DNA from: Candidatus Omnitrophota bacterium
GTDB taxonomy: Bacteria; Omnitrophota; Gorgyraeia; Pluralincolimonadales; Pluralincolimonadaceae
Length of the DNA stretch: 53,107 bases
Assembly: GCA_003141835.1 (NCBI GenBank)
Contig: PLNR01000005.1
Location: forward strand, 1-53,107
Reading direction: 5' to 3'
Each line of letters begins with the position of its first letter. Position 1 is the stretch's first letter. A program made the position numbers and the translations under genes. This document shows positions 60 to 16,207 of the stretch, piece by piece. Below the pieces are notes generated by a model. The model had not been told where the DNA came from, did no database searches, and saw nothing but the letters and a program-made list of their open reading frames with translations.

Positions 60-404
60 ATGGATGAAATGCACGTAGCGGTAACAAAGGGCGGTAAAAG
101 GAAGTGGAGTCTAGAGCAGAAGATGGGCATCATAGGCGAGCTTAACTCCGGGGTGGATGCAGCGGAGCTGTGCCGCAAGTACAATATCCACGCTCAGATG
201 CTGTATAAGTGGAGAAGGACGTTGGAGTCCGGCGGTAAGGAAGGCCTAAAGGCGGGTAGTGAGATCGTTGCCAAAGGCCAGTACCAGGCGGCCTTGAAGA
301 AGATAGACGAGCTTGAGCGCGCCTTAGGCAGAAAGACCTTAGAGCTCGACATTTTAAAAAAAAGCTTCGAACTAAAGGGGTTAAAATTACCCGAGGGGAT
401 ATAA
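60..404 (+). CDS. IS3-family transposase OrfA (HTH)
   Basis: This 114-residue protein has the N-terminal helix-turn-helix fold of IS3 OrfA. It shows KRKWSLEQKMGIIGEL followed by AAELCRKYNIHAQMLYKWRR, the transposase_8/HTH_Tnp motif that binds the terminal repeats. A C-terminal leucine-rich coiled coil (about residues 75-105) is the usual multimerisation segment. The start at 60 is supported by GGAGG at 50-54. Near its 3' end a run of eight A (356-363) is placed so that a -1 slip joins it to orfB. The coding frame ends 29 bp before the first possible orfB start. Confidence 0.92.
   Translation: MDEMHVAVTKGGKRKWSLEQKMGIIGELNSGVDAAELCRKYNIHAQMLYKWRRTLESGGKEGLKAGSEIVAKGQYQAALKKIDELERALGRKTLELDILKKSFELKGLKLPEGI
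356..364 (+). promoter_or_regulatory. Programmed -1 frameshift site (A8G) joining orfA and orfB
   Basis: In the orfA frame the ribosome reads TTA AAA AAA across 354-362, giving the slippery heptamer A AAA AAA followed by AG. OrfB lies in the -1 frame. I read the -1 frame by hand from 362 to the orfB start and found no stop codon, so a slip would make an OrfAB fusion. That is the active transposase in the IS3 family. The frame relation and open frame are seen directly; use of the site is inferred from the family. Confidence 0.8.
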
Positions 405-433
405 GGCTCCTCTCTCTTCGTTGTAACTGCTCT

Positions 434-1255
434 TTGAGAATAGTCTTAAAGGTATTAGGCAAAGGCCAGGGTTGGTACTTTTACAGGATAAAGCCCCGGC
501 GCCTTATCCCCATAATCCGCAGGCCTGAAGTGGCAGAGGCGATAAGAAAAATCATCAAGGACAGGCCTGCCACATACGGTTATCGTCGGGTGCATGCCAA
601 GATAAGGCATATGGGCATAGTATGCGATTCTAAGACGGTAAACCGGTATATGAGGCTTAAATTATGGCTAGCCTCAGACCGCCAGAAGCGCAAAGCGCGG
701 GAGCGCCGGGAAGGCGTGGTCTCAGTTCCTGAGCCTAATATGCGCTGGGCATCGGACTTTACGATCATCAAGGCCTGGAACAACGAAAAAGGCAGGCTTG
801 CAATCGTTATTGATTGCGGTTCCCGTCAGGTGATAGAATACCTATGGGCGAGATCCATCAAAGGCGATGATATCGGCCGTATGGTAGAGAGGGCAACAGA
901 GAAGCGCTTTGCAGATGGACGGGTTCCTTTAGTCGAGTTCCTAAGCGACAACGGTCCCGAGTACATCAAGACGGAGTTGCGGCTCCTGTTAAAGCAAATG
1001 GGCTTTACGGTATGCAATACCCCGATAAGGAGCCCCGAAAGTAACGGCATCGCCGAGTCGTTCTTTAAGAGCTTTAAAAGGGATTACGTCTACCAGAACG
1101 TCTGTGAGAGCTTTGAAGACATTGCCGCTAAAATAGGCGGCTGGATAGAGGACTACAACACCCAGGCGCCTCATAGCGGCTTGGGGATGCGGACACCGGC
1201 GCAGTTCTATGAGGAATGGAAGCTGAAAAGCAGGTTAAAAGTGGTACAGATTTGA
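434..1255 (+). CDS. IS3-family transposase OrfB (DDE catalytic domain)
   Basis: This is the catalytic part of the transposase, with an RNase H-like DDE integrase fold (rve). An N-terminal HTH_21-type segment (ATYGYRRVHAKIR) precedes the catalytic triad. The first Asp is in WASDFTII, the second in FLSDNGPEY, and the Glu is in SPESNGIAESFF, with spacing typical of DD(35)E. The nominal start at 434 is TTG with no good ribosome binding site. In practice the protein is probably made as the OrfAB fusion by the -1 shift at the A8 run. No internal stop or gap is seen, so the element may still be active. Confidence 0.9.
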   Translation: MRIVLKVLGKGQGWYFYRIKPRRLIPIIRRPEVAEAIRKIIKDRPATYGYRRVHAKIRHMGIVCDSKTVNRYMRLKLWLASDRQKRKARERREGVVSVPEPNMRWASDFTIIKAWNNEKGRLAIVIDCGSRQVIEYLWARSIKGDDIGRMVERATEKRFADGRVPLVEFLSDNGPEYIKTELRLLLKQMGFTVCNTPIRSPESNGIAESFFKSFKRDYVYQNVCESFEDIAAKIGGWIEDYNTQAPHSGLGMRTPAQFYEEWKLKSRLKVVQI

Positions 1256-2784: not shown

Positions 2785-2817
2785 GGTTAATATGTTTGTA
2801 ATATTGATCGCTATACT
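2764..2817 (+). promoter_or_regulatory. Promoter B: four 11-bp phased heptamers plus TATACT
   Basis: Heptamers TTTAACC (2764), ATTAATT (2775), GTTAATA (2786) and TGTAATA (2797) lie on an 11-bp grid. TATACT is at 2812-2817, again 8 bp after the last heptamer. The first two heptamers lie inside the 3' end of the rubredoxin-like gene. The downstream operon (2856 onward) holds the outer-membrane protein, permease-PII, PII, HTH, amt and glnK genes. Heptamers are weaker than in arrays A, C and D but there is one more of them. Confidence 0.65.
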
Positions 2818-2855
2818 TGCTTAGTGAAAACATTGGGAGAAAGAGAGATGAACAG

Positions 2856-3647
2856 ATGTTCCGTCAAAAGGTATTGGTTTTATGCGTTCTTGGTTTATCT
2901 TCATTAATATTCCCCGCGGCATGCTTCGCGACCGCCACCACCCACATCTGGGCACCGTCCACTGACGTACAGCCGTATGGTGTCATCCACGTAACCCCCG
3001 CGGACGTGTATCTCCCCGTAAAAAAGGACTCATCCGGGAATAGGGTGCCCGTGATAACGAATTCGGGGCTTACCGTGGGCGTGTTGCCTTTCGATAAGTT
3101 CAACGTTGAAGCCGGATTCGACTACAAGGCAGGGTTGGGGGACCTGGATCATGATCCGATGTATTTCAACGCGAAAGGCGGGATACCTGAAGGCGCGTTT
3201 GGAGAGTGGTTCCCGGCCCTGGCTATCGGCGCTTATGATATAGGCACAAAAACCGACAAGACCAATAATAACGTGCTCTACTTCAAAGGTGCGAAGACAT
3301 TCAAGATCAAGGGTTTCGACCTCGGCCGCCTCTCTATGGGGTATTTTAACGGCAATGGCAAGTTGTTACGCGGCCCGAACGGCGGAAAGGACAACGCCGA
3401 TGTTTTCGGCGCCTGGGAGCGCACCATGACTGAAATATCACCAAAGCTCTGGCTCTGCGTCGAGTACCAGGGGACGAAGAGCACCTACGGTTCGTGGAAT
3501 TTCGGCGGGTCGTGGAAATTTTCCGATAACGTCTCGCTGCTCGTAGGTTTCGACCGTTACAACAACAGGAATCTTGCCGATACGGTAACCGTGCAGGTCG
3601 ATATAGATTTTGACGCGTTCAGCAAGCTGTTTAAAGGAAAGAAATAA
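2856..3647 (+). CDS. Predicted outer-membrane beta-barrel protein
   Basis: This 263-residue protein starts with a signal peptide (hydrophobic VLVLCVLGLSSLIF, cleavage near CFA). The mature part has alternating aromatic and polar residues, many Gly and Asn turns, and ends in a strand-like VQVDIDFDAFSKLF, all consistent with a small beta-barrel. The start at 2856 is chosen because the promoter B -10 box ends at 2817 and rules out the upstream frame extension; AGAGAG lies 7-12 bp before the ATG. Its place directly upstream of permease and ammonium transporter genes suggests a porin for nitrogen compounds. The family is not named with certainty. Confidence 0.65.
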   Translation: MFRQKVLVLCVLGLSSLIFPAACFATATTHIWAPSTDVQPYGVIHVTPADVYLPVKKDSSGNRVPVITNSGLTVGVLPFDKFNVEAGFDYKAGLGDLDHDPMYFNAKGGIPEGAFGEWFPALAIGAYDIGTKTDKTNNNVLYFKGAKTFKIKGFDLGRLSMGYFNGNGKLLRGPNGGKDNADVFGAWERTMTEISPKLWLCVEYQGTKSTYGSWNFGGSWKFSDNVSLLVGFDRYNNRNLADTVTVQVDIDFDAFSKLFKGKK

Positions 3648-3657
3648 GGAGGCTGCC

Positions 3658-5505
3658 ATGACTGACCTTAAAACGACTTCTCCGGTAGTAAAACCTACGC
3701 TCGGATTATTGGGCGCAACGGTAAACGCCATGGCGCTGATCGCGCCGGGAGCGTTCCTCTGGATCACTTACCAGCTGCAGGCCGCGGCCACGGCGCCGAA
3801 CGGCGCCTCGGTCTCGAGCGATATCTGGGCCGGCATAGTCCTCGCGCTGATCGTCGCGTTCCTTACCGCATTTTCGTACGCGGAGCTGGCGAAGATCTAT
3901 CCGGAAGCGGGTTTTGCGAGCTGCGTCTATTTTGCGGAAAAAGCTTTTCTGGACCGCCACAAAGATAATAAGAGGAGCGCGCCGAATTCTTTAGCGCGTT
4001 TCGCCAAAATAGCAACGGGGTGGGCAGCCCATTTGTTCTACTGGGTATATCCGGGCGTCATGGTCGCGATGATGGCGACGCTTATCGGTTATATTTATAC
4101 CCAGTTTACCGGCCATGCGCTATCGAGCATAGTCCTGACGGTCATAGGCGTGGTTTTTGCGATAGCCACAGGATACATCGCTTTCCGCGGGGTGACCGGC
4201 TCGACCAAGACGGCGTTATGGATAAACGTCATACAGCTTGTCACGCTGGTCATATTCAGCGGATTGGCCATCTGGTACCGTTTTTCCAATCCCCAGCACG
4301 CGGCCCAATGGACGTTCAGCGGGGCCTTGGATATAATGCGGCCCCATTCGATCAGCGGCGTGCTGATACAATCTACGCTGGCCATCCTCATCCTTGTCGG
4401 GTTTGAAAGCTGCACGGCACTCGCCGCCGAGACGAAAAACCCGGAGACTACAATACCGAAGGCGATCATCATATCGCTCGTCATCCAGGGCCTGTTCGCT
4501 TATCTGCTCGAGTATCTTGCGGCAGGGCTCATGCTAAGCGACAAATTTACCATGACTGCCGCAGCCGCCTCAGGGGCTCCCATAGGCGACCTGGCAAAGC
4601 TTATCGGCAATAACCTGCTGGGCGGTCTCGGCTTCGGGCTTATGATAACGATGGCGGTCACGGTGGCTATCGCCATAATAGGCACGACATTAAGCTGTAT
4701 GAGCACGGCCATGCGCGTAAGCTGCGGAATGGCTGCCGACCGTGAATTGCCCGAGATGCTCGGTTTCATGCATGAACGTTTCAGCACTCCCCATGTCTCC
4801 CTCTGGACGCTGGTGATCGTTACCTCGGTGATCGCCGCTATCGGAGTGAGATCTGTCGTGGGCCTGACCGGCATCACGCTTGCCTCGAACTTCGGGACGT
4901 TCATATTATACGGCCTGACCTGCCTCTGGACCATAATCGCGTTCAAGGGCAGGGTGAGGTTTAATTTCATAAAACACTGGCTCATTCCCGCGCTGGGCCT
5001 GGTCACTAATGTAGTAATGGCGATCGCGATCATTTATCTGTACAGCGTCGGTAATGCCGACGCGAAAGCCGAAGCGAATATCTGCTTCCTTATCGCGGGG
5101 GCGTGGGCTGTTATCAGCATCGCGTATGTCGCCGTGACTACCGTCAAGAGGTCATACCGCCTGAAGATGATCTCGTGCATGATACGGCCGGAGCAGCTTA
5201 ATATCGTGACAGAGGCCCTTAAGGAAGACGAACTTATCATGGGCATGACGGTGTCAAAGGTAAAGGGATTCGGCCGGCAGAAGGGTAATGTTGACGCGAG
5301 TTCGGATCCGGGCGAAGACAAGATCACATTCCTTCCCAAGATCAGGGTAGACCTGGTCGTAAAAGACTGGGATGTCAGGAAGGTGATGGATCTTATTGGA
5401 GAGGCTGTCCGTACCGGGAATTTCGGCGACGGAAAGATCTTCGTAGTCGATGCAACGGACGCCATGCGCATACGTACCGGCGAAAAAGGCGTCTGGGCCA
5501 TATAG
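3658..5505 (+). CDS. APC-family amino acid permease fused to a C-terminal PII domain
   Basis: Residues 1-495 form a 12-helix APC-superfamily permease. Recognisable parts are the first-helix LGLLGATVNAMALIAPGAF, a Glu in helix 6 (LILVGFESCTALAAE), and the conserved KNPETTIPKAIIIS loop. Residues about 501-615 form a complete PII (GlnB/GlnK) domain with KGFGRQKG before the T-loop, GDGKIFVVD and the ATP-phosphate loop RIRTGEKG. The T-loop is rewritten to an acidic, Ser-rich sequence (NVDASSDPGEDKITFLPK) without Tyr-51. A strong AAGGAGG at 3646-3652 supports the ATG at 3658. The inferred role is amino acid uptake gated directly by 2-oxoglutarate/ATP/ADP sensing. It is cotranscribed with a free PII 11 bp downstream. 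The substrate is unknown. Confidence 0.88.
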   Translation: MTDLKTTSPVVKPTLGLLGATVNAMALIAPGAFLWITYQLQAAATAPNGASVSSDIWAGIVLALIVAFLTAFSYAELAKIYPEAGFASCVYFAEKAFLDRHKDNKRSAPNSLARFAKIATGWAAHLFYWVYPGVMVAMMATLIGYIYTQFTGHALSSIVLTVIGVVFAIATGYIAFRGVTGSTKTALWINVIQLVTLVIFSGLAIWYRFSNPQHAAQWTFSGALDIMRPHSISGVLIQSTLAILILVGFESCTALAAETKNPETTIPKAIIISLVIQGLFAYLLEYLAAGLMLSDKFTMTAAAASGAPIGDLAKLIGNNLLGGLGFGLMITMAVTVAIAIIGTTLSCMSTAMRVSCGMAADRELPEMLGFMHERFSTPHVSLWTLVIVTSVIAAIGVRSVVGLTGITLASNFGTFILYGLTCLWTIIAFKGRVRFNFIKHWLIPALGLVTNVVMAIAIIYLYSVGNADAKAEANICFLIAGAWAVISIAYVAVTTVKRSYRLKMISCMIRPEQLNIVTEALKEDELIMGMTVSKVKGFGRQKGNVDASSDPGEDKITFLPKIRVDLVVKDWDVRKVMDLIGEAVRTGNFGDGKIFVVDATDAMRIRTGEKGVWAI

Positions 5506-5516
5506 GGAGGATCGAG

Positions 5517-5855
5517 ATGAAAAAGATAGAAGCCATAATACGGCCCGCGAGGGTGGGCCAGGTATGTTCGGCGCTGGAAAAGTTAGGCCACCCGGGCTTG
5601 ATGATCACGGAGATCGAAGGGCACGGCAAACAGATGGGCCTGGAACAGCAGTTTCGCGGAGAAACATTCAAGACGGAGCTGTTGCCTAAAGCGAAGCTTG
5701 AGATCGTCGTGAAAGATGCCGATGTGGATAAGATAGTCGAGACGATCATAAGATCCGGCAGGACCGGCGAGATAGGCGACGGCAAGATCTTTATTTATAA
5801 CATGGAAGACGCCGTACGCATAAGGACGAGCGAGAGAGGCGAAGGCGCGATCTAA
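5517..5855 (+). CDS. PII-family signal protein without Tyr-51
   Basis: This 112-residue protein is a full-length PII. It begins MKKIEAIIRP, has the T-loop GHGKQMGLEQQFRGETFKTELLPK, the GEIGDGKIFI B-loop and the C-loop RIRTSERG. PII trimers bind ATP/ADP and 2-oxoglutarate and move the T-loop into partner proteins. Position 51, the uridylylation site of enteric PII, is Phe, and position 46 is also Phe. GGGAGG lies 7 bp before the ATG. It follows the permease-PII fusion directly, so a mixed trimer or competition for the same site is possible but unproven. Confidence 0.92.
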   Translation: MKKIEAIIRPARVGQVCSALEKLGHPGLMITEIEGHGKQMGLEQQFRGETFKTELLPKAKLEIVVKDADVDKIVETIIRSGRTGEIGDGKIFIYNMEDAVRIRTSERGEGAI

Positions 5856-5856
5856 A

Positions 5857-6033
5857 ATGATCAACAAGGAATTGATAGACAAGATAAGACGGCTGAAGGC
5901 CGATCAGGGATATACCCTGTACGAGTTATCGAAAAGGGTGGACGTCCAGCCGTCCACCCTTGAGAGATGGTTGAAGACCAACCGCATAAACAGGGTTTAT
6001 GCGGAGATGATCACCAGAAAGCTCGGGATATAG
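5857..6033 (+). CDS. Small helix-turn-helix DNA-binding protein (58 aa)
   Basis: The frame encodes 58 residues starting MINKELIDKIRRLKADQGY. An XRE/Cro-like helix-turn-helix follows (TLYELSKRVDVQPSTLERWLK), and the protein ends ITRKLGI. The start lies 1 bp after the stop of the PII gene, so translation is probably coupled. Short proteins of this kind bind DNA as dimers. A perfect 10-bp inverted repeat lies inside the coding region at 5935-5960 and could be an autoregulatory site or an mRNA hairpin. The target genes are unknown; its location between PII and amt suggests a local role. Confidence 0.75.
   Translation: MINKELIDKIRRLKADQGYTLYELSKRVDVQPSTLERWLKTNRINRVYAEMITRKLGI
5935..5960. repeat. 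Perfect 10-bp inverted repeat inside the HTH gene
   Basis: AGGGTGGACG (5935-5944) and CGTCCACCCT (5951-5960) are exact reverse complements separated by TCCAGC. The stem is GC-rich, with a 6-nt loop and no T-run after it, so it is not a standard terminator. It lies in codons for KRVDVQPSTLE, across the helix-turn-helix. Confidence 0.7.
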
Positions 6034-6105: not shown

Positions 6106-7443
6106 ATGGGAAAGTACCTGAAGAAGAGCGCGTTCTGGTTTTTCGCGGCTTTTCTGCTCTTCACTGTAATAGCGACGGTAGTCGCGGCCGCGGAGGTCAC
6201 TCCTGCGGCTAAGGTCGACACCGGTGATACGGCATGGCTTTTGACATCGGCGGCGCTGGTGTTATTGATGACGCCGGCCCTGGCATTTTTCTACGGCGGC
6301 CTCGTGCGCAGGAAGAACGTGCTTTCGATCCTGATGCAGTGCTTCATGCTGATGTGCCTCATAACCGTACAATGGGTACTTTTTGGTTACAGCCTTGCCT
6401 TCGGTCCCGATATAAAGGGGATAATAGGCAGCCTCGGGTGGTTCGGGCTCAAAGGAGTGGGGCTTGAACCGTATCCGGCCTATGCCGCGACCGTCCCTCA
6501 TCAGGCATTCATGATATTCCAGGCGATGTTTGCCATAATAACTCCCGGCCTAATATGCGGCGCATTCGCCGAGAGGATGAAGTTCTCGACGTTCTGTATC
6601 TTTACTCTTTTATGGGCAACGCTAGTATATGATCCTGTTTGCCACTGGGTCTGGGGCGTCGGAGGATTTTTAAGGGCGGGTGGTGCGCTCGATTTCGCGG
6701 GAGGCACGGTCGTCCATATCAATGCCGGTGTCGCAGCGTTAGCATGCGCCCTCGCATTGGGGAAACGTAAAGGCTATCCCGATAAGATATCCCCGCCGCA
6801 CAACCTGCCGTTCGCAGTCTTGGGGGCAGGCCTGCTCTGGTTCGGATGGTTCGGGTTCAACGGCGGAAGCGCTCTTGGTTCCGGCTCGCTTGCGACGAAC
6901 GCGTTTGTAGTGACGCACGTTGCGGCTGCTACTGCCGGCCTGACCTGGGCCCTCCTTGACTGGATATTCAGTTCCCGTTCCACCGTCTTAGGTATTATAA
7001 CCGGCGCTGTCGGAGGCCTTGTCGCGATAACCCCGGCGTCAGGTTTCGTCAATGTTGTCGGCGCATTATGGATAGGCATAGGCGTCTCGGTATTCTGCTA
7101 CATGGCCGTTGCCATATTAAAAGTGAAGTTTGGCTATGACGATTCGCTTGACGCTTTCGGCGTCCACGGCGTAGGAGGCATTTGGGGGGCCCTGGCTACC
7201 GGCCTCTGGGCGACAAAAATGGTCAATCCGGCCGGCGCGAACGGCCTTTTTTACGGCAACCCGGCGCAGTTCCTTATACAGTTCAAGGCCGTTATAATCA
7301 CCGCGGTTTATTCGTTCGTAATGACTTTCGTGATACTTAAGGCCCTCAATGCCTTTATGGGTGTTCGCGCTTCGGAACAGGATGAGCGTATCGGCCTGGA
7401 CCTTACACAACACCGTGAAGCCGGTTACACGGTCTTAGATTAG
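6106..7443 (+). CDS. amt: Ammonium transporter, first copy
   Basis: This 445-residue Amt/Mep/Rh family channel carries ammonium across the inner membrane. It begins with a cleavable or first hydrophobic segment (FWFFAAFLLFTVIATVVAAA) and then eleven helices. The conserved Asp and first pore His are in YDPVCHWVWG, and the second pore His is in FGVHGVGGIWG. The conserved DDSLDAFGVHG stretch and the C-terminal cytosolic GlnK-contact tail (ERIGLDLTQHREAGY) are present. AAAAGGAGG precedes the ATG. The partner glnK starts 8 bp after the stop. A second, closely similar amt-glnK pair follows, and parts of the two copies are identical in DNA. Confidence 0.95.
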   Translation: MGKYLKKSAFWFFAAFLLFTVIATVVAAAEVTPAAKVDTGDTAWLLTSAALVLLMTPALAFFYGGLVRRKNVLSILMQCFMLMCLITVQWVLFGYSLAFGPDIKGIIGSLGWFGLKGVGLEPYPAYAATVPHQAFMIFQAMFAIITPGLICGAFAERMKFSTFCIFTLLWATLVYDPVCHWVWGVGGFLRAGGALDFAGGTVVHINAGVAALACALALGKRKGYPDKISPPHNLPFAVLGAGLLWFGWFGFNGGSALGSGSLATNAFVVTHVAAATAGLTWALLDWIFSSRSTVLGIITGAVGGLVAITPASGFVNVVGALWIGIGVSVFCYMAVAILKVKFGYDDSLDAFGVHGVGGIWGALATGLWATKMVNPAGANGLFYGNPAQFLIQFKAVIITAVYSFVMTFVILKALNAFMGVRASEQDERIGLDLTQHREAGYTVLD

Positions 7444-7451
7444 GAGGAACC

Positions 7452-7793
7452 ATGAAATATATTGTAGCAATAATACAACCCGATAAACTCGATGAGGTGC
7501 TTACGAAACTTGAAGAAAAGGAGATACACCTGGTGACCGTGACCAGCGTGATGGGCCGCGGCCGCCAGAAAGGCATCTCCGAGGTCTACAGGAGCCATAA
7601 GGAGGCGGGCAGCCTGCTTAAAAAGGTAAAGCTGGAGATCGCCGTGAACGATGATTTTGTAAAACCGACCATAGATGCCATAACGTCCGGCGCAAGGACC
7701 GGCCACGTAGGCGACGGAAAGATATTTATTCTCGATTTGCCGGAATGTATTCGTATACGTACAGGAGAGAAGGGAAATCCTGCAATTGGATAG
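7452..7793 (+). CDS. glnK: PII protein GlnK, first copy
   Basis: This 113-residue PII is paired with the upstream amt and should block its pore when nitrogen is plentiful. It starts MKYIVAIIQP, has GRGRQKGISEVYRSHK at the T-loop, GHVGDGKIFI, and RIRTGEKG. Tyr-46 is present but position 51 is Glu (SHKEAGSLLKK), so uridylylation at the classical site is not possible. TAGGAGG lies 6 bp before the ATG. The middle 137 bp (7512-7648) are identical to those of the second glnK. Confidence 0.95.
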   Translation: MKYIVAIIQPDKLDEVLTKLEEKEIHLVTVTSVMGRGRQKGISEVYRSHKEAGSLLKKVKLEIAVNDDFVKPTIDAITSGARTGHVGDGKIFILDLPECIRIRTGEKGNPAIG

Positions 7794-8006
7794 ATTAAAG
7801 CGGGTGACTGGGCAGGCAGGACCCGCCCAAGCGAACTGATTGTCGGGGAGAGATTGCGATTTAACATTAACGTAACATGGATTTAACATTCAGTTAGTAC
7901 ACTATTCCCATAAAATTGGGACGGAAACAAAGTAATTTTTTGCCCTAAATTTATCAATTGAATAATCAATTGTATAAATGACCGGCAAACAAAAGGATAT
8001 ATGGGA
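7794..8006 (+). promoter_or_regulatory. Intergenic region with promoter C and a leader hairpin
   Basis: After glnK a GC-rich stem (GCGGGT at 7800-7805 with ACCCGC at 7821-7826) may act as a weak terminator but has no T-run. A 27-bp block at 7827-7853 (starting CCAAGCGAACTG) recurs upstream of promoter D. The promoter C array follows. In the 5' leader, CAATTG, a 6-nt AATAAT loop and a second CAATTG form a hairpin about 7964-7981, just before the ribosome binding site. The hairpin lacks G at loop position 4, so it does not fit the known ANTAR target loop. Confidence 0.5.
7860..7903 (+). promoter_or_regulatory. Promoter C: three 11-bp phased heptamers plus TACACT
   Basis: TTTAACA (7860), CGTAACA (7871) and TTTAACA (7882) lie exactly 11 bp apart. 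TACACT at 7898-7903 serves as the -10, 9 bp after the last heptamer. There is no recognisable -35. It drives the second amt-glnK pair. Of the four arrays this one has the best match to a single heptamer consensus. Confidence 0.75.
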
Positions 8007-9344
8007 ATGATAAAGTTGTTCAAACGTCCGCAGTTCTGGTTTCTTGCGGCCTTCCTGCTCTTCACGATAGCCGCGACAGTAGTGGCTGCGGCAGAAGCCG
8101 CTCCCGCGCCTAAGGTAGATTCCGGTGATACAGCATGGCTCCTCACTTCGGCGGCGTTAGTCCTGCTCATGACGCCGGGACTGGCATTCTTCTACGGCGG
8201 ACTGGTCCGCCGCAAGAACGTACTTTCATTATTGATGCAGTGTTTTATGCTCATGTGCCTCATCACGATGCAGTGGGCCTTGTTCGGTTACAGCCTTGCC
8301 TTCGGGCCTGACATAAAAGGTATCATAGGCAGCCTCGGGTGGTTCGGGCTCAAAGGAGTGGGGCTTGAACCGTATCCGGCCTATGCCGCGACCGTCCCTC
8401 ATCAGGCATTCATGATATTCCAGGCGATGTTTGCCATAATAACTCCCGGCCTAATATGCGGCGCATTCGCCGAGAGGATGAAATTCTCGACGTTCTGCGT
8501 ATTCACGCTTATCTGGGCGACCCTCGTATACGATCCGGTCTGCCACTGGGTATGGGGCGCCGGCGGGTTCCTTAAGGCCGCAGGAGTGCTTGATTTTGCC
8601 GGCGGTATCGTCGTCCACATCAATGCCGGCGTGGCGGCATTAGCATGCGCCCTCGTATTGGGGAAACGTAAAGGCTATCCCGACAAGATATCCCCGCCGC
8701 ACAACCTGCCGTTCGCAGTCTTGGGGGCAGGCCTGCTCTGGTTCGGATGGTTCGGGTTCAACGCAGGGAGCGCGCTCACATCAGGCGCACTGGCGACAAG
8801 CGCTTTTGTGAATACCCAGTTTGCCGGCGCGGCCGCAGGCCTGACCTGGGCCCTCCTTGACTGGATATTCAATTCCCGTTCGACGGTCTTAGGCATCATA
8901 ACCGGAGCTGTCGGCGGCCTCGCCGCGGTGACCCCTGCCTCGGGTTTTATAACTCCCATAGGCGCAATATGGATAGGGATCGTCGTTTCGGCATTATGCT
9001 ACATGGCGGTCGCGATATTGAAAAATAAATTGGGCTACGACGATTCGCTCGACGCTTTCGGCGTCCACGGCATCGGCGGAATGTGGGGGACGCTGGCTGC
9101 CGGCCTCTGGGCGACAACCATGGTCAATCCTGCCGGCGCGAACGGCCTTTTTTACGGCAACCCGGCGCAGTTCTTCATCCAGTTAAAGGCCGTGGTAATA
9201 ACTTCCGTATATTCATTTGTCATGACTTTTGTGATCCTTAAGGTCCTCAACGCGGTTATGGGCGTGCGCGCCTCGGAGCAGGACGAGCGCATCGGCCTCG
9301 ACCTTACGCAACACCGTGAAGCCGGCTACACGATCTTAGATTAA
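8007..9344 (+). CDS. amt: Ammonium transporter, second copy
   Basis: This is a paralogue of the upstream amt with the same length and topology and nearly the same protein. The pore residues (YDPVCHWVWG and FGVHGIGGMWG) and the C-terminal GlnK-contact tail are kept. An ATG also occurs at 8001, but AAAGGAT ends only about 2 bp before it. The ATG at 8007 has normal spacing, giving MIKLFKRPQFWF. Unlike copy one it has its own phased-heptamer promoter. DNA identity to copy one is patchy, with a 158-bp identical block (8325-8482) and a 79-bp identical block (8685-8763) between diverged stretches. Confidence 0.94.
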   Translation: MIKLFKRPQFWFLAAFLLFTIAATVVAAAEAAPAPKVDSGDTAWLLTSAALVLLMTPGLAFFYGGLVRRKNVLSLLMQCFMLMCLITMQWALFGYSLAFGPDIKGIIGSLGWFGLKGVGLEPYPAYAATVPHQAFMIFQAMFAIITPGLICGAFAERMKFSTFCVFTLIWATLVYDPVCHWVWGAGGFLKAAGVLDFAGGIVVHINAGVAALACALVLGKRKGYPDKISPPHNLPFAVLGAGLLWFGWFGFNAGSALTSGALATSAFVNTQFAGAAAGLTWALLDWIFNSRSTVLGIITGAVGGLAAVTPASGFITPIGAIWIGIVVSALCYMAVAILKNKLGYDDSLDAFGVHGIGGMWGTLAAGLWATTMVNPAGANGLFYGNPAQFFIQLKAVVITSVYSFVMTFVILKVLNAVMGVRASEQDERIGLDLTQHREAGYTILD

Positions 9345-9353
9345 GGAGGAACC

Positions 9354-9695
9354 ATGAAATATATTATTGCTATAATCCAGCCTGACAGGCTAGATGATGT
9401 GTTGACGAAATTGGAAGAAAAGGAGATACACCTGGTGACCGTGACCAGCGTGATGGGCCGCGGCCGCCAGAAAGGCATCTCCGAGGTCTACAGGAGCCAT
9501 AAGGAGGCGGGCAGCCTGCTTAAAAAGGTAAAGCTGGAGATCGCCGTGAATGACGATTTCGTAAAACCTGCGGTAGAGGCGATAAAGTCAGGCGCGCGCA
9601 CAGGCCACGTCGGCGACGGCAAGATATTCATCCTCGACCTGCAGGAAGCCATCCGCATCCGCACGGGCGAGAAGGGCGGCCCGGCGATAGGATAA
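9354..9695 (+). CDS. glnK: PII protein GlnK, second copy
   Basis: This 113-residue PII is nearly identical to the first GlnK. It differs mostly in the first 20 residues and in the segment after AVNDDFVKP. The T-loop (GISEVYRSHKEAGSLLKK) is identical, with Glu at position 51. The DNA from 9414 to 9550 is identical to 7512-7648. It starts 9 bp after the second amt with AAGGAGG at 9343-9349. It is expected to gate the second Amt, and heterotrimers with the first GlnK are likely since the T-loops are the same. Confidence 0.94.
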   Translation: MKYIIAIIQPDRLDDVLTKLEEKEIHLVTVTSVMGRGRQKGISEVYRSHKEAGSLLKKVKLEIAVNDDFVKPAVEAIKSGARTGHVGDGKIFILDLQEAIRIRTGEKGGPAIG

Positions 9696-9899: not shown

Positions 9900-11411
9900 A
9901 TGAAAGGGAAAGCAGTAAAGAAGGGGGCAGCGGAAGTGAAGACAAAAAATCCGCTCGTGAACGGCGCGTTCGACGAAAAGGCCGCGCGCGACGTGATGAA
10001 GATGGTGAAGGAAAAGAAGATCGATATAATCGATCTTAAGTTCAACGACCTGCCGGGGTTGTGGCAGCATTTCTCGATACCGGCTTCGGAATTGCTCGAG
10101 ATGGATGATATAACACGCTCCATCTGGGTCGATGGCATCGGGTTCGACGGCTCCTCGATCCGCGGTTTCCAGAAGATACAGGAATCGGACATGATCATGA
10201 TACCGGACCCGGCTACCGCGGTCATCGACCCCATATGCGAGGTCCCGACCTTAAGCATTATCTGCGATATTTACGACCCGTTGACGCGTAAACCGTATTC
10301 ACGCGATCCGCGTTATATCGCGAAGAAAGCTGAGAAATACCTCAAAGAAACCGGCATAGCCGACTCGATCTATTTCGGCCCCGAAGCCGAGTTCTTCCTT
10401 TTTAACGACGTCCGTTTCGACCAGAACGAGAATTCCGGTTATTACTATATCGATTCGGATGAAGCCGACTGGAACACCGGGCGCAAGGAAGACCCGAACT
10501 TAGGGTATAAGATCCGTTTCAAGGAAGGGTATTTCCCTGTCCCGCCGCACGATACGCTCCAGGATCTAAGGAGCCGCATGATCTTGAAGATGAAGGAAGC
10601 GGGAGTGACCATAGAGGTTCATCATCACGAGGTTGCCACAGCCGGACAATGCGAGATCGACATCAAATTCGATAAACTGACCAAGATGGCCGACAAACTT
10701 TTGATGTACAAATACATCATAAAGAACATGGCCAGGAAGAACGGCATGGTAGCGACATTCATGCCGAAGCCGCTCTTCGCGGACAACGGTTCGGGAATGC
10801 ATTGCCACCAGAGCCTCTGGAAAAACGGCGTCAACCTCTTCTACGACAAGAACGGCTACGCGCTCATAAGCCAGACCGCCAAATATTACATCGGCGGCCT
10901 GTTAAAGCACGCGAACAGCCTTATGGCCTTCTGTGCCCCTACGACAAACTCTTATAAGAGATTGGTCCCGGGCTATGAAGCGCCTGTAAACCTTGTATAT
11001 TCGGCGCGCAACCGCTCGGCGGCCGTCCGCATACCGATGTACAGCGACAGCCCGAAATCCAAGAGGATCGAGTTCAGGCCTCCGGATCCGTCATGCAACG
11101 GCTACATCGCCTTCAGCGCCATGCTCATGGCCGGTTTGGACGGTATCATCAACAAGATCGATCCGGGCAAACCGACCGACAAGGACCTCTTCGAATTGAG
11201 CGGCGAAGAGATAGCCAAGATACCTACGGTGCCGTCATCGCTGAAGCGCGCGATGGATGCATTGGAAGCGGACCACGAGTACCTGCTTAGAGGCGGGGTA
11301 TTCACAAAGGATGTTATAGACATTTGGCTGGAATTCAAGAGGAAGAAAGAGATAGACGCGGTGAGAATGCGTCCGCATCCTTACGAGTTCTACCTCTATT
11401 TCGATATTTAA
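9900..11411 (+). CDS. glnA: Type I glutamine synthetase, GSI-beta-like
   Basis: This 503-residue enzyme makes glutamine from glutamate, ammonia and ATP. The motifs are [28 protein letters not shown] (metal site), [14 protein letters not shown], the ATP site [20 protein letters not shown], and NRSAAVRIP (glutamate site). The [16 protein letters not shown]-type insertion is usual in GSI-beta. A Lys-rich extension of about 30 residues precedes the usual start. The position of the adenylylated Tyr reads DLFELSGEE (about residue 430), so Tyr is replaced by Phe and regulation by adenylylation is unlikely. It has its own phased-heptamer promoter and GGGAGG ribosome binding site. Confidence 0.95.
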
Positions 11412-14138: not shown

Positions 14139-15479
14139 ATGGCAGCCAAATCGATCAAGGACAAAGAATATGTATTAAAGATGGCCAAGGAGGCCAACGT
14201 AAAGTTCATCAGGCTGTGGTTCACCGACATCCTGGGATTTGTAAAATCTTTCGCAATAACGGTAGAGGAGCTCGAAGGGGCGCTCGAAGAGGGCATGGGA
14301 TTTGACGGTTCCTCTATCGAGGGTTTCGCGCGCATAGACGAGTCGGACATGATGGCGCGGCCCGACCCAAGCACTTTCGTACTTCTTCCCTGGAGGCCGA
14401 AGGACGAATTCGCCGTCGCCAGGATGTTCTGCGATATCGTCCGGCCTGACGGTTCGCCTTTCGAGGGGGACCCGAGATATATATTGAAGCAGAACCTGAA
14501 GCGCGCGGCGAAACTCGGATTCACTTTTTACGTCGGGCCCGAGCTGGAGTTCTTCTATTTCAAGGATAATAAAGGGACCGAGCCGCTAGACGCGGGCGGG
14601 TATTTCGACCTTATACCGCCTGACCCGGCATCGGATTTGAGGCGCGATACGGTCCTCATGCTCGAGGCGATGGGCATAGGCGTCGAATACAGCCATCACG
14701 AAGTCGCGCCGAGCCAGCACGAGATAGACTTAAGATATACCGACGCGCTCACGATGGCGGATGCGGCGATGACATACCGCGTCGTCGTCAAGGAGGTCGC
14801 CCAGCGCTACGGTTATTACGCGACGTTCATGCCCAAGCCGGTGTACGGGGTGAATGGGTCGGGCATGCACGTCCACCAGTCGCTCTTTAAGGGCGACAAG
14901 AACGCCTTCTTTGAAGCGAAGGATAAATACCATCTTTCAAAGCTGGCAAAGAACTATATCGCAGGCCTGCTCAAGCATTCGCGCGAGATAACCTCGGTCA
15001 CGAGCCAGTGGGTCAACTCATACAAGAGGCTCGTCCCGGGCTATGAGGCGCCGGTATACATCGCGTGGGCAAAGAGGAACCGCTCGACGCTGGTAAGGAT
15101 ACCCGAATACAAGCCCGGAAAAGAGAAGGCGACGCGCGTAGAATACCGCTCGCCGGACCCCGCGTGCAATCCTTATCTTGCGTTCAGTGTCATGCTTGCC
15201 GCGGGACTAGAGGGCATTGAGAAGAATTACGAGCTAATCCCTCCGACCGAAGAGAACGTCTTTGAATTGACGCCGGAAGAGAGGACGAAGCGCGGGATAA
15301 GGCCGTTACCCGGCGACCTTTATGAGGCTATATGCGAAACCGAGAAGAGTTCCGTGGTAAGGAAAGCCCTCGGCGAGCACGCCTTCCGTTCGTTTATCGA
15401 GAACAAGAAGATAGAGTGGGATAAATACAGGGCCCGCGTCACCGATTATGAGTTAAAGGAATACCTTTCGATATTATGA
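14139..15479 (+). CDS. glnA: Type I glutamine synthetase, GSI-alpha-like
   Basis: This 446-residue glutamine synthetase is shorter than the one at 9900 and of the GSI-alpha style. It has RLWFTDILGFVKSF, FDGSSIEGFARIDESDM, YVGPELEFFYF, YSHHEVAPSQHEIDLRY, the ATP site MPKPVYGVNGSGMHVHQSLF, and the glutamate site WAKRNRSTLVRIP. The position of the adenylylated Tyr reads NVFELTPEE (about residue 375), as expected for GSI-alpha, which is feedback-controlled and not adenylylated. AAAAAGGAG lies before the ATG. It is cotranscribed with nadE, and its TGA overlaps the start of the ANTAR gene by ATGA. Confidence 0.95.
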   Translation: MAAKSIKDKEYVLKMAKEANVKFIRLWFTDILGFVKSFAITVEELEGALEEGMGFDGSSIEGFARIDESDMMARPDPSTFVLLPWRPKDEFAVARMFCDIVRPDGSPFEGDPRYILKQNLKRAAKLGFTFYVGPELEFFYFKDNKGTEPLDAGGYFDLIPPDPASDLRRDTVLMLEAMGIGVEYSHHEVAPSQHEIDLRYTDALTMADAAMTYRVVVKEVAQRYGYYATFMPKPVYGVNGSGMHVHQSLFKGDKNAFFEAKDKYHLSKLAKNYIAGLLKHSREITSVTSQWVNSYKRLVPGYEAPVYIAWAKRNRSTLVRIPEYKPGKEKATRVEYRSPDPACNPYLAFSVMLAAGLEGIEKNYELIPPTEENVFELTPEERTKRGIRPLPGDLYEAICETEKSSVVRKALGEHAFRSFIENKKIEWDKYRARVTDYELKEYLSIL

Positions 15480-16207
15480 CGCGTAAACCCGCGGCCAAAA
15501 GCCCGAAATCGCAGTCGTCATACGAGAAACAGATAGAGGCGTTATCGAAAATAAGCCAGACGATAGCCTCAAACCTTTACCTGGAAGACGTCCTGCGCCT
15601 TATAGTCATGGTCACGGCCGAGGTGATGAACTCAAAAATATGCTCGCTCATGCTCGTGGACGAGGAGAAGGGCGAACTTGTCATACGCGCTACCCAGAGC
15701 GTCAGCGAAGCGTATAACAAGAAACCCAACATGAAGATAGGCGCCGGGATAGCCGGGAAGGCCGCCAAGGAAGGAAAGCCGATCCAGGTATCGGATGTCC
15801 GCGGCGACCCGCGTTACCTGAACAGGGATATCGCCAAAAGCGAGAAGCTCTGCTCGCTCCTCTCGATGCCGATGACGGTGAAAGGGAAGGTCATAGGCGT
15901 CCTGAACGTCTATACATCGACGCCCCATATCTTTACTCGGAATGAGATAAACGTCCTGACTTCGGTCGCCAACCAGGCGGCAGTCGCCATAGAGAACGCC
16001 CAGCTGATGGTCAGGTCCAAGGTAATACAGGAGGAGCTCGAGGCCCGCAAGATGGTCGAGAGGGCGAAGGGGATACTGATGCGCAGGGGCATGGCCGAGG
16101 AAGACGCTTTCAGGAAGATACAGAAACAGGCGATGAGCCTGCGCAAGACGATGAAGCAGATCGCCGAAGCTATAATACTGACCGACGAGCTGGAGCGGGA
16201 CAAGTAG
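15476..16207 (+). CDS. GAF-ANTAR regulator (RNA-binding antiterminator)
   Basis: This 243-residue protein has a GAF sensor domain (about residues 20-175, with CSLMLVDEEKGELVIRATQ and GAGIAGKAAKEGKPIQVSDVR). A short coiled linker follows, then an ANTAR domain at the C terminus (MVERAKGILMRRGMAEEDAF, then MSLRKTMKQIAEAIIL). ANTAR proteins such as NasR, EutV and AmiR bind dual-hexaloop RNA and prevent termination. Its start overlaps the glutamine synthetase stop by ATGA, so the two are translationally coupled. This suggests nitrogen-related control at the RNA level. The ligand of the GAF domain is unknown, and I found no clear ANTAR target in the leaders of this window. Confidence 0.88.
   Translation: MTRKPAAKSPKSQSSYEKQIEALSKISQTIASNLYLEDVLRLIVMVTAEVMNSKICSLMLVDEEKGELVIRATQSVSEAYNKKPNMKIGAGIAGKAAKEGKPIQVSDVRGDPRYLNRDIAKSEKLCSLLSMPMTVKGKVIGVLNVYTSTPHIFTRNEINVLTSVANQAAVAIENAQLMVRSKVIQEELEARKMVERAKGILMRRGMAEEDAFRKIQKQAMSLRKTMKQIAEAIILTDELERDK

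What the first reader, a model, noticed from the sequence alone, without database searches (positions are those of the whole stretch)
3658..5505. Amino acid permease with a PII sensor domain fused to its C terminus
An APC-superfamily permease continues without a stop into a complete PII domain (GRQKG, GDGKIF, RIRTGEKG). The T-loop is replaced by an acidic Ser-rich sequence, so it need not reach out to a separate partner. PII normally acts in trans on Amt, NAGK or enzymes. A covalent PII-transporter would make amino acid uptake answer directly to energy and 2-oxoglutarate. The free PII gene 11 bp downstream could form mixed trimers with it.
Basis: partly seen in the sequence, partly recalled or inferred. 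Interest (0 to 1): 0.8.

Follow-up and report, generated by a model that had tools for sequence, protein, structure and literature searches.

The report
Amino acid permease fused to PII sensor
A bacterial amino-acid-type transporter carries, as one continuous protein, the PII domain that cells normally use as a separate sensor of energy and nitrogen status; the fusion is real, probably arose once and is conserved in about nine bacterial phyla, which suggests a transporter with a built-in fuel-and-nitrogen gauge.

Summary
Confirmed and extended. ORF 3658-5505 (615 aa) is a 12-TM APC-superfamily permease running, without a stop and with a junction of invariant length, into a complete C-terminal PII domain. 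It is no sequencing error: 36 fused proteins from 34 loci (about nine phyla, all metagenome assemblies) share it, and trees favour one fusion event. PII-core dN/dS (0.055-0.058) equals that of the permease (0.058); the T-loop is relaxed (0.18), variable, usually acidic, with Tyr51 and Arg47 lost in 36/36. Residues that bind ATP/ADP and 2-oxoglutarate on both sides of the inter-subunit cleft are kept, so the domain should still bind ligands, which requires a trimer. A free PII of a distinct clade lies just downstream in 25/30 fused loci and 0/44 unfused ones; many unfused relatives instead have a PP2C phosphatase and Ser/Thr kinase there, absent from all fused loci. I infer a trimeric permease gated in cis by ADP/ATP/2-OG. 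Substrate, direction of control and mixed trimers are untested. No paper found in the open-licence library describes an APC-PII fusion; trans PII-transporter control and other fused regulatory domains are known. New variant of a known kind.

The parts
3658..5502 (+). APC permease-PII fusion protein, 615 aa (stop codon 5503-5505)
   Evidence: Single open frame; AA_permease_2 plus P-II; 36 fused proteins from 34 loci
3709..5136 (+). 12-TM permease part (residues 18-493), APC/LeuT fold
   Evidence: Hydropathy gives 12 segments; Foldseek best hits GkApcT 5oqt/6f34, AdiC, BasC, KimA
5137..5160 (+). Short junction TTVKRSYR (residues 494-501) between TM12 and PII strand 1; no indel in any of 36 fused proteins
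   Evidence: AlphaFold model shows helix 467-500 followed directly by strand 502-509
5161..5502 (+). PII domain (residues 502-615), ends at the canonical PII C-terminus
   Evidence: P-II E 4.7e-21; PDB GlnK chains down to E 3.9e-25; domain model pLDDT 85, the 50 listed Foldseek hits are PII/GlnK
5287..5331 (+). Degenerate acidic T-loop (residues 544-558)
   Evidence: Variable length 12-22, Tyr51 and Arg47 0/36; dN/dS 0.18 versus 0.06 in the core
5368..5370 (+). Trp571 (PII position 68), invariant in fused domains, absent from free PIIs
   Evidence: 36/36 fused versus 0/63 free PIIs
5517..5852 (+). Free PII protein of a clade distinct from GlnK, conserved next to the fusion
5857..6030 (+). 58-aa putative helix-turn-helix protein, conserved in several fused loci
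   Evidence: Homologues in L001, L002, L005, L006, L007, L010; HTH nature read by eye
6106..9692 (+). Two Amt-GlnK gene pairs (Amt 6106 and 8001, GlnK 7452 and 9354)
   Evidence: Pfam Ammonium_transp for 6106 and P-II for 7452 and 9354; Amt 8001 by homology
9900..11408 (+). Type I glutamine synthetase
2817..3644 (+). Probable exported or outer-membrane protein just upstream; homologues beside 11 other loci of the permease family
   Evidence: Cluster 8; no Pfam or NCBIfam hit

Best explanation
An APC-superfamily permease has captured a PII domain as a cis-acting cytosolic sensor. The PII domain hangs directly on TM12. It trimerises (as homotrimers of the fusion, perhaps mixed with the neighbouring free PII) because its ATP/ADP/2-oxoglutarate site is built from two adjacent subunits. 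Ligand exchange in that site changes the PII ring and, through the short TM12 junction, shifts the permease between active and inactive states. The T-loop is no longer the output device and drifts. By analogy with GlnK-AmtB I expect inhibition when 2-OG is low and ADP high (nitrogen-replete) and uptake when Mg-ATP plus 2-OG are high. Shown: fusion, monophyly, purifying selection, retained ligand residues, T-loop loss, constant junction length, conserved adjacent PII. Inferred: ligand binding, trimer, cis gating. Guessed: direction of control and amino-acid substrate.
For: Fusion in 36 proteins from 34 loci; fused members form one clade in the permease tree and in the PII tree (SH-aLRT 100). 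PII positions R9, T29, G37, K58, G87-K90 and R101 are 36/36, Q39 29/36, R103 33/36, and all domains end at position 112; these are residues reported to bind ATP/Mg/2-OG, with T29, V64, R101 and R103 coming from the neighbouring subunit and a role for the free C-terminus (PMC8395244; Lys58 and Gln39 in PMC6908673). Core dN/dS equals that of the permease, the T-loop is three times higher; no indel at the junction in 36/36. Trp at position 68 is fused-specific, 36/36 versus 0/63. Adjacent free PII 25/30 fused versus 0/44 unfused; PP2C 0/27 versus 28/42 and kinase 0/19 versus 23/41, consistent with one regulatory module having replaced another. No GlnD match in the host genome, so ligand-only signalling is likely. 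Precedent for an APC-superfamily transporter controlled by a nucleotide bound to its own C-terminal cytosolic domain: KimA (PMC10284832).
Against: No binding or transport data. The T-loop is the normal PII output and is lost, so the signal path to the permease is hypothetical. APC transporters are known to me as monomers or dimers, so a trimer would be unusual. Seven of 36 proteins (FCPU426 members and one Centralia genome) carry Q39T. AlphaFold was run only on the monomer and the PII part of the full-length model is of moderate confidence. All loci are metagenome assemblies. Neighbourhood counts are not independent of phylogeny.
Confidence: 0.62

Rival explanations
1. The fused domain is mainly a membrane anchor for the neighbouring free PII: fused and free chains form mixed trimers so that the free PII, whose T-loop is kept, is held at the membrane or released by ligands, to act on Amt, glutamine synthetase or others; transport itself may be little affected.
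For: Free PII within 1.5 kb downstream in 25/30 fused loci and 0/44 unfused; most of these free PIIs form their own clade; the free PIIs usually keep Tyr51 and Arg47; L005 and L093 have a T-loop-less small PII beside the fusion.
Against: Some fused loci (L022, L027, L028, L032, L057) have no free PII immediately downstream. No interaction data. The window's free PII itself has Phe at position 51.
Confidence: 0.2
2. Transceptor: the permease reports external substrate to the nitrogen network through its PII domain rather than being controlled by it.
For: The cluster holds Amt-GlnK pairs, glutamine synthetase and a putative DNA-binding protein, so a signal from the membrane could be used.
Against: The T-loop, the known output of PII, is degenerate in all fused domains while the ligand site is kept.
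Confidence: 0.08
3. The PII domain is only a structural trimerisation or stability module with no regulatory role.
For: An APC-superfamily transporter has a C-terminal oligomerisation domain elsewhere (KimA, PMC10284832).
Against: Ligand residues with no evident structural need (K58, K90, R101, R103, C-terminal end) are kept, and core dN/dS is about 0.06.
Confidence: 0.08
4. Artefact: missed stop or assembly error at the junction.
For: All data are metagenome assemblies.
Against: The same open junction in 34 loci from many phyla and data sets, under purifying selection.
Confidence: 0.01

Closest known systems
GlnK-AmtB and other trans-acting PII-transporter pairs (Amt1, NrtABCD, UrtABCDE; SbtB-SbtA)
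   Same: A PII-family sensor controls a nutrient transporter after translation; same ligand residues as canonical PII
   Different: Here the sensor is covalent, on an APC permease, and lacks the T-loop tip that plugs AmtB
KimA (KUP family, APC superfamily)
   Same: APC-fold transporter whose C-terminal cytosolic nucleotide-binding domain controls transport (PMC10284832)
   Different: KimA domain is PPAT-like, dimeric, binds c-di-AMP; KimA transports K+
Amt-PII fusion (L105 4751-6502, found here)
   Same: Transporter with a C-terminal PII domain (Pfam Ammonium_transp plus P-II)
   Different: About 45 residues between the domains and an intact T-loop (QQWRGESYRVDLIPK), as expected if it plugs its own Amt; the APC fusion has almost no linker and a degenerate T-loop
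AexB (YvjA), aromatic amino acid exporter of Bacillus subtilis
   Same: Amino-acid transporter with a cytoplasmic PII-like cap that contributes to transport efficiency (PMC13170310)
   Different: Belongs to another, previously uncharacterised membrane protein family; mechanism of the PII-like cap unclear in that paper
Transporters with fused Usp, CBS, PAS or CNBD domains
   Same: C-terminal plug-in regulatory domain (review PMC10710835; a multi-pass protein with Usp in L105)
   Different: Different sensor; the passages read in that review name no covalent PII

Membership tests
PII signal transduction protein (GlnB/GlnK) | P-II sequence family and beta-alpha-beta-beta-alpha-beta fold | tested here: met
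   Pfam E 4.7e-21; domain model and Foldseek to GlnK/PII
PII signal transduction protein (GlnB/GlnK) | ATP/ADP and 2-OG binding residues (T29, Q39, K58, G87-K90, R101, R103, C-terminus) | tested here: met
   All present in the window protein and in 29-36 of 36 fused proteins; actual binding not tested
PII signal transduction protein (GlnB/GlnK) | Conserved T-loop for partner binding, with the Tyr51 modification site | tested here: not met
   Tyr51 and Arg47 0/36, sequence and length variable
PII signal transduction protein (GlnB/GlnK) | Stand-alone soluble protein | tested here: not met
   Covalently joined to a permease: it is a PII domain, not a GlnB/GlnK protein
PII signal transduction protein (GlnB/GlnK) | Trimeric assembly | not testable with these tools
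   No multimer prediction; retention of residues from both sides of the inter-subunit cleft implies it
APC superfamily (AA_permease_2) | Sequence family and LeuT-type fold with 12 TM segments | tested here: met
   Pfam E 2.5e-20; hydropathy; Foldseek
APC superfamily (AA_permease_2) | Transport of amino acids | not testable with these tools
   No curated equivalog reached its cut-off; substrate unknown
KimA-like nucleotide-gated APC-superfamily transporter (works-like comparison) | C-terminal cytosolic nucleotide-binding-type domain after TM12 | tested here: met
   Topology and domain position; the domain families differ, so not a member
KimA-like nucleotide-gated APC-superfamily transporter (works-like comparison) | Ligand-dependent control of transport | not testable with these tools
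   Needs biochemistry

The most novel reading that the evidence does not exclude
A trimeric APC permease gated in cis by its own PII ring, possibly as mixed rings with the neighbouring free PII, using a T-loop-independent output through TM12; in evolution this PII module took the place of a Ser/Thr kinase-phosphatase pair that accompanies many unfused permeases.
Probability: 0.4. Interest if true: 0.85.

Novelty: new variant of a known kind. Interest (0 to 1): 0.7.

Why it matters
PII is among the most widespread nitrogen/energy sensors and is known as a separate protein that docks through its T-loop. A conserved covalent PII-transporter whose T-loop has decayed while its ligand site has not is a natural test of whether PII can signal without its T-loop, and of how ligand binding can gate an APC-fold transporter. 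The permease family, with one branch beside a kinase-phosphatase pair and another carrying PII, also makes regulatory-module swapping directly testable.

Tried and rejected
Sequencing-error or missed-stop explanation: rejected by 34 loci with the same open junction. Substrate assignment by family models: no curated equivalog near its cut-off. Substrate by neighbours: glutamine synthetase is common near unfused members and Amt near fused ones, which suggests nitrogen nutrition but no specific substrate. Literature: seven searches for APC-PII or PII fusions found no such fusion; the library holds only open-licence papers. A genome search centred on another phylum could not be run from a locus id. 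No multimer prediction is offered. An ORF of 112 aa directly after the unfused permease in L026 is not PII. Three rows labelled unfused inside the fused clade of the permease tree (L023, L025, L038) are contigs that end inside the gene.

Full report
Observation. The frame 3658-5505 encodes 615 residues without a stop. Pfam places AA_permease_2 on residues 56-464 and P-II on 503-609. Hydropathy gives 12 membrane segments, the last at 475-493, with basic residues just after it, so the C-terminus should be cytosolic. PII position 1 is residue 502. The AlphaFold model of the whole chain (mean pLDDT 78) runs TM12 as one helix 467-500 straight into the first PII strand, 502-509. Modelled alone, the domain (pLDDT 85) has the PII order of strands and helices and its listed PDB matches are all GlnK/PII chains. 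The permease matches GkApcT, AdiC, BasC and KimA structures.

Is it real and conserved? A scan of species genomes gave 80 relatives, about a third of them fused. With the phylum search (16 of 384 genomes; all complete hits fused, two cut at contig ends) and duplicates removed there are 36 fused proteins from 34 loci. Record titles name Omnitrophota, Elusimicrobia, Planctomycetota, Syntrophaceae, Nitrospirae, Deltaproteobacteria, Spirochaetaceae, Fibrobacteres and FCPU426, plus one labelled Proteobacteria; all are metagenome assemblies. The distribution is patchy, and proteins from different phyla are often about 70-75% identical, which suggests horizontal transfer (inference). In the permease tree the fused loci form one clade (SH-aLRT 100), and in the PII tree the 36 fused domains do too (100), consistent with one fusion (quick trees, the PII one with few columns).

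What selection kept. In E. coli GlnB numbering, fused domains keep R9, T29, G37, K58, G87, D88, G89, K90 and R101 in 36/36, R103 in 33, Q39 in 29, and all end exactly at position 112. Structures of GlnK with Mg-ATP and 2-OG use T29', Q39, G87, K90, V64', R101' and R103' for ATP (primes: neighbouring subunit), and R9, K58 and the Q39/G41 backbone for 2-OG, and the free C-terminus helps (PMC8395244); K58 is needed for 2-OG binding (PMC6908673). Keeping residues from both faces of the cleft implies a trimer. Having PII at the C-terminus of the fusion preserves the free carboxylate. The T-loop is different: length 12-22, mean net charge -1.5 against +0.8 in the PIIfree-type proteins and +0.25 in GlnK, Tyr51 and Arg47 in 0/36. 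Pooled dN/dS is 0.058 for the permease, 0.055 and 0.058 for the two halves of the PII core and 0.18 for the T-loop (13 pairs; synonymous sites are near saturation in several pairs, so these are rough). The stretch 470-510 has no indel in 36/36. Trp at position 68 (residue 571) is invariant in fused domains and absent from all 63 free PIIs examined. From the fold topology (strand 1 runs parallel to strand 2, whose far end bears the T-loop) I infer that the membrane-tethered end lies opposite the T-loop base and near the start of helix 2, where this Trp sits; I could not check this on coordinates.

Contrast. An Amt-PII fusion in the same phylum (L105 4751-6502) has about 45 residues between its domains and an intact T-loop. 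That is what one expects if its domain still plugs its own Amt pore, and it strengthens the reading that the APC fusion uses another output.

Neighbourhood. In the window the order is exported protein, APC-PII, free PII, 58-aa putative HTH protein, Amt-GlnK, Amt-GlnK, glutamine synthetase. The host genome (1.57 Mb, 97.7% complete) has no other PII domain and no GlnD uridylyltransferase match. A free PII follows within 1.5 kb in 25 of 30 fused loci and 0 of 44 unfused ones; PP2C phosphatases follow in 0 of 27 versus 28 of 42, Ser/Thr kinases in 0 of 19 versus 23 of 41 (annotation). These counts share ancestry, so the Fisher values describe lineages, not independent events. The nearest unfused relatives (L031, L033-L035) have exported protein, permease, kinase and/or phosphatase, and a separate PII nearby, an arrangement that could precede fusion. 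Unfused proteins stop roughly 15-30 residues after TM12.

Mechanism. Best reading: cis gating of a trimeric permease by ligand binding in the PII ring (0.62). Rivals: anchoring of the free PII (0.2), transceptor (0.08), structural module (0.08). These are not strictly exclusive. The Q39T proteins have probably lost or changed 2-OG sensing while keeping the nucleotide residues.

Novelty. A review of transporter regulation lists PII acting in trans on AmtB, Amt1, NrtABCD, UrtABCDE and (SbtB) SbtA, and fused CBS, PAS, CNBD and Usp domains; the passages read name no covalent PII (PMC10710835). AexB has a PII-like cap on an exporter of another family (PMC13170310). No APC-PII fusion turned up in the open-licence library; subscription papers and domain-architecture databases could hold one. 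Hence new variant of a known kind.

Noticed in passing
L105 4751-6502 +: Ammonium transporter with a C-terminal PII domain, longer linker and intact T-loop, beside a normal Amt and GlnK.
   Followed up: partly
L005 6318-6710 + and L093 1153-1473 -: Small free PII with the T-loop deleted, directly after the APC-PII gene.
   Followed up: partly
L029-L080 (unfused relatives): Same permease family in an operon-like order with a PP2C phosphatase, a Ser/Thr kinase and often glutamine synthetase: possibly a phosphorylation-controlled nitrogen transporter.
   Followed up: partly
L027 3647-7938 and L057: Two copies of the fused gene close together, in members with Q39T.
   Followed up: no
L105 561-2288 -: Multi-pass transporter-like protein with a C-terminal Usp domain next to the Amt-PII fusion.
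   Followed up: no
window 15476-16207 +: Looks like a GAF plus ANTAR antiterminator after a second glutamine synthetase (14139-15479); read by eye, not tested.
   Followed up: no
window 60-1255 +: Looks like an IS3-type transposase pair upstream of the cluster; read by eye, not tested.
   Followed up: no
own genome C1:109054-110202 + (L106): Second AA_permease_2 protein in a 667-aa open frame; its C-terminal part was not examined.
   Followed up: no
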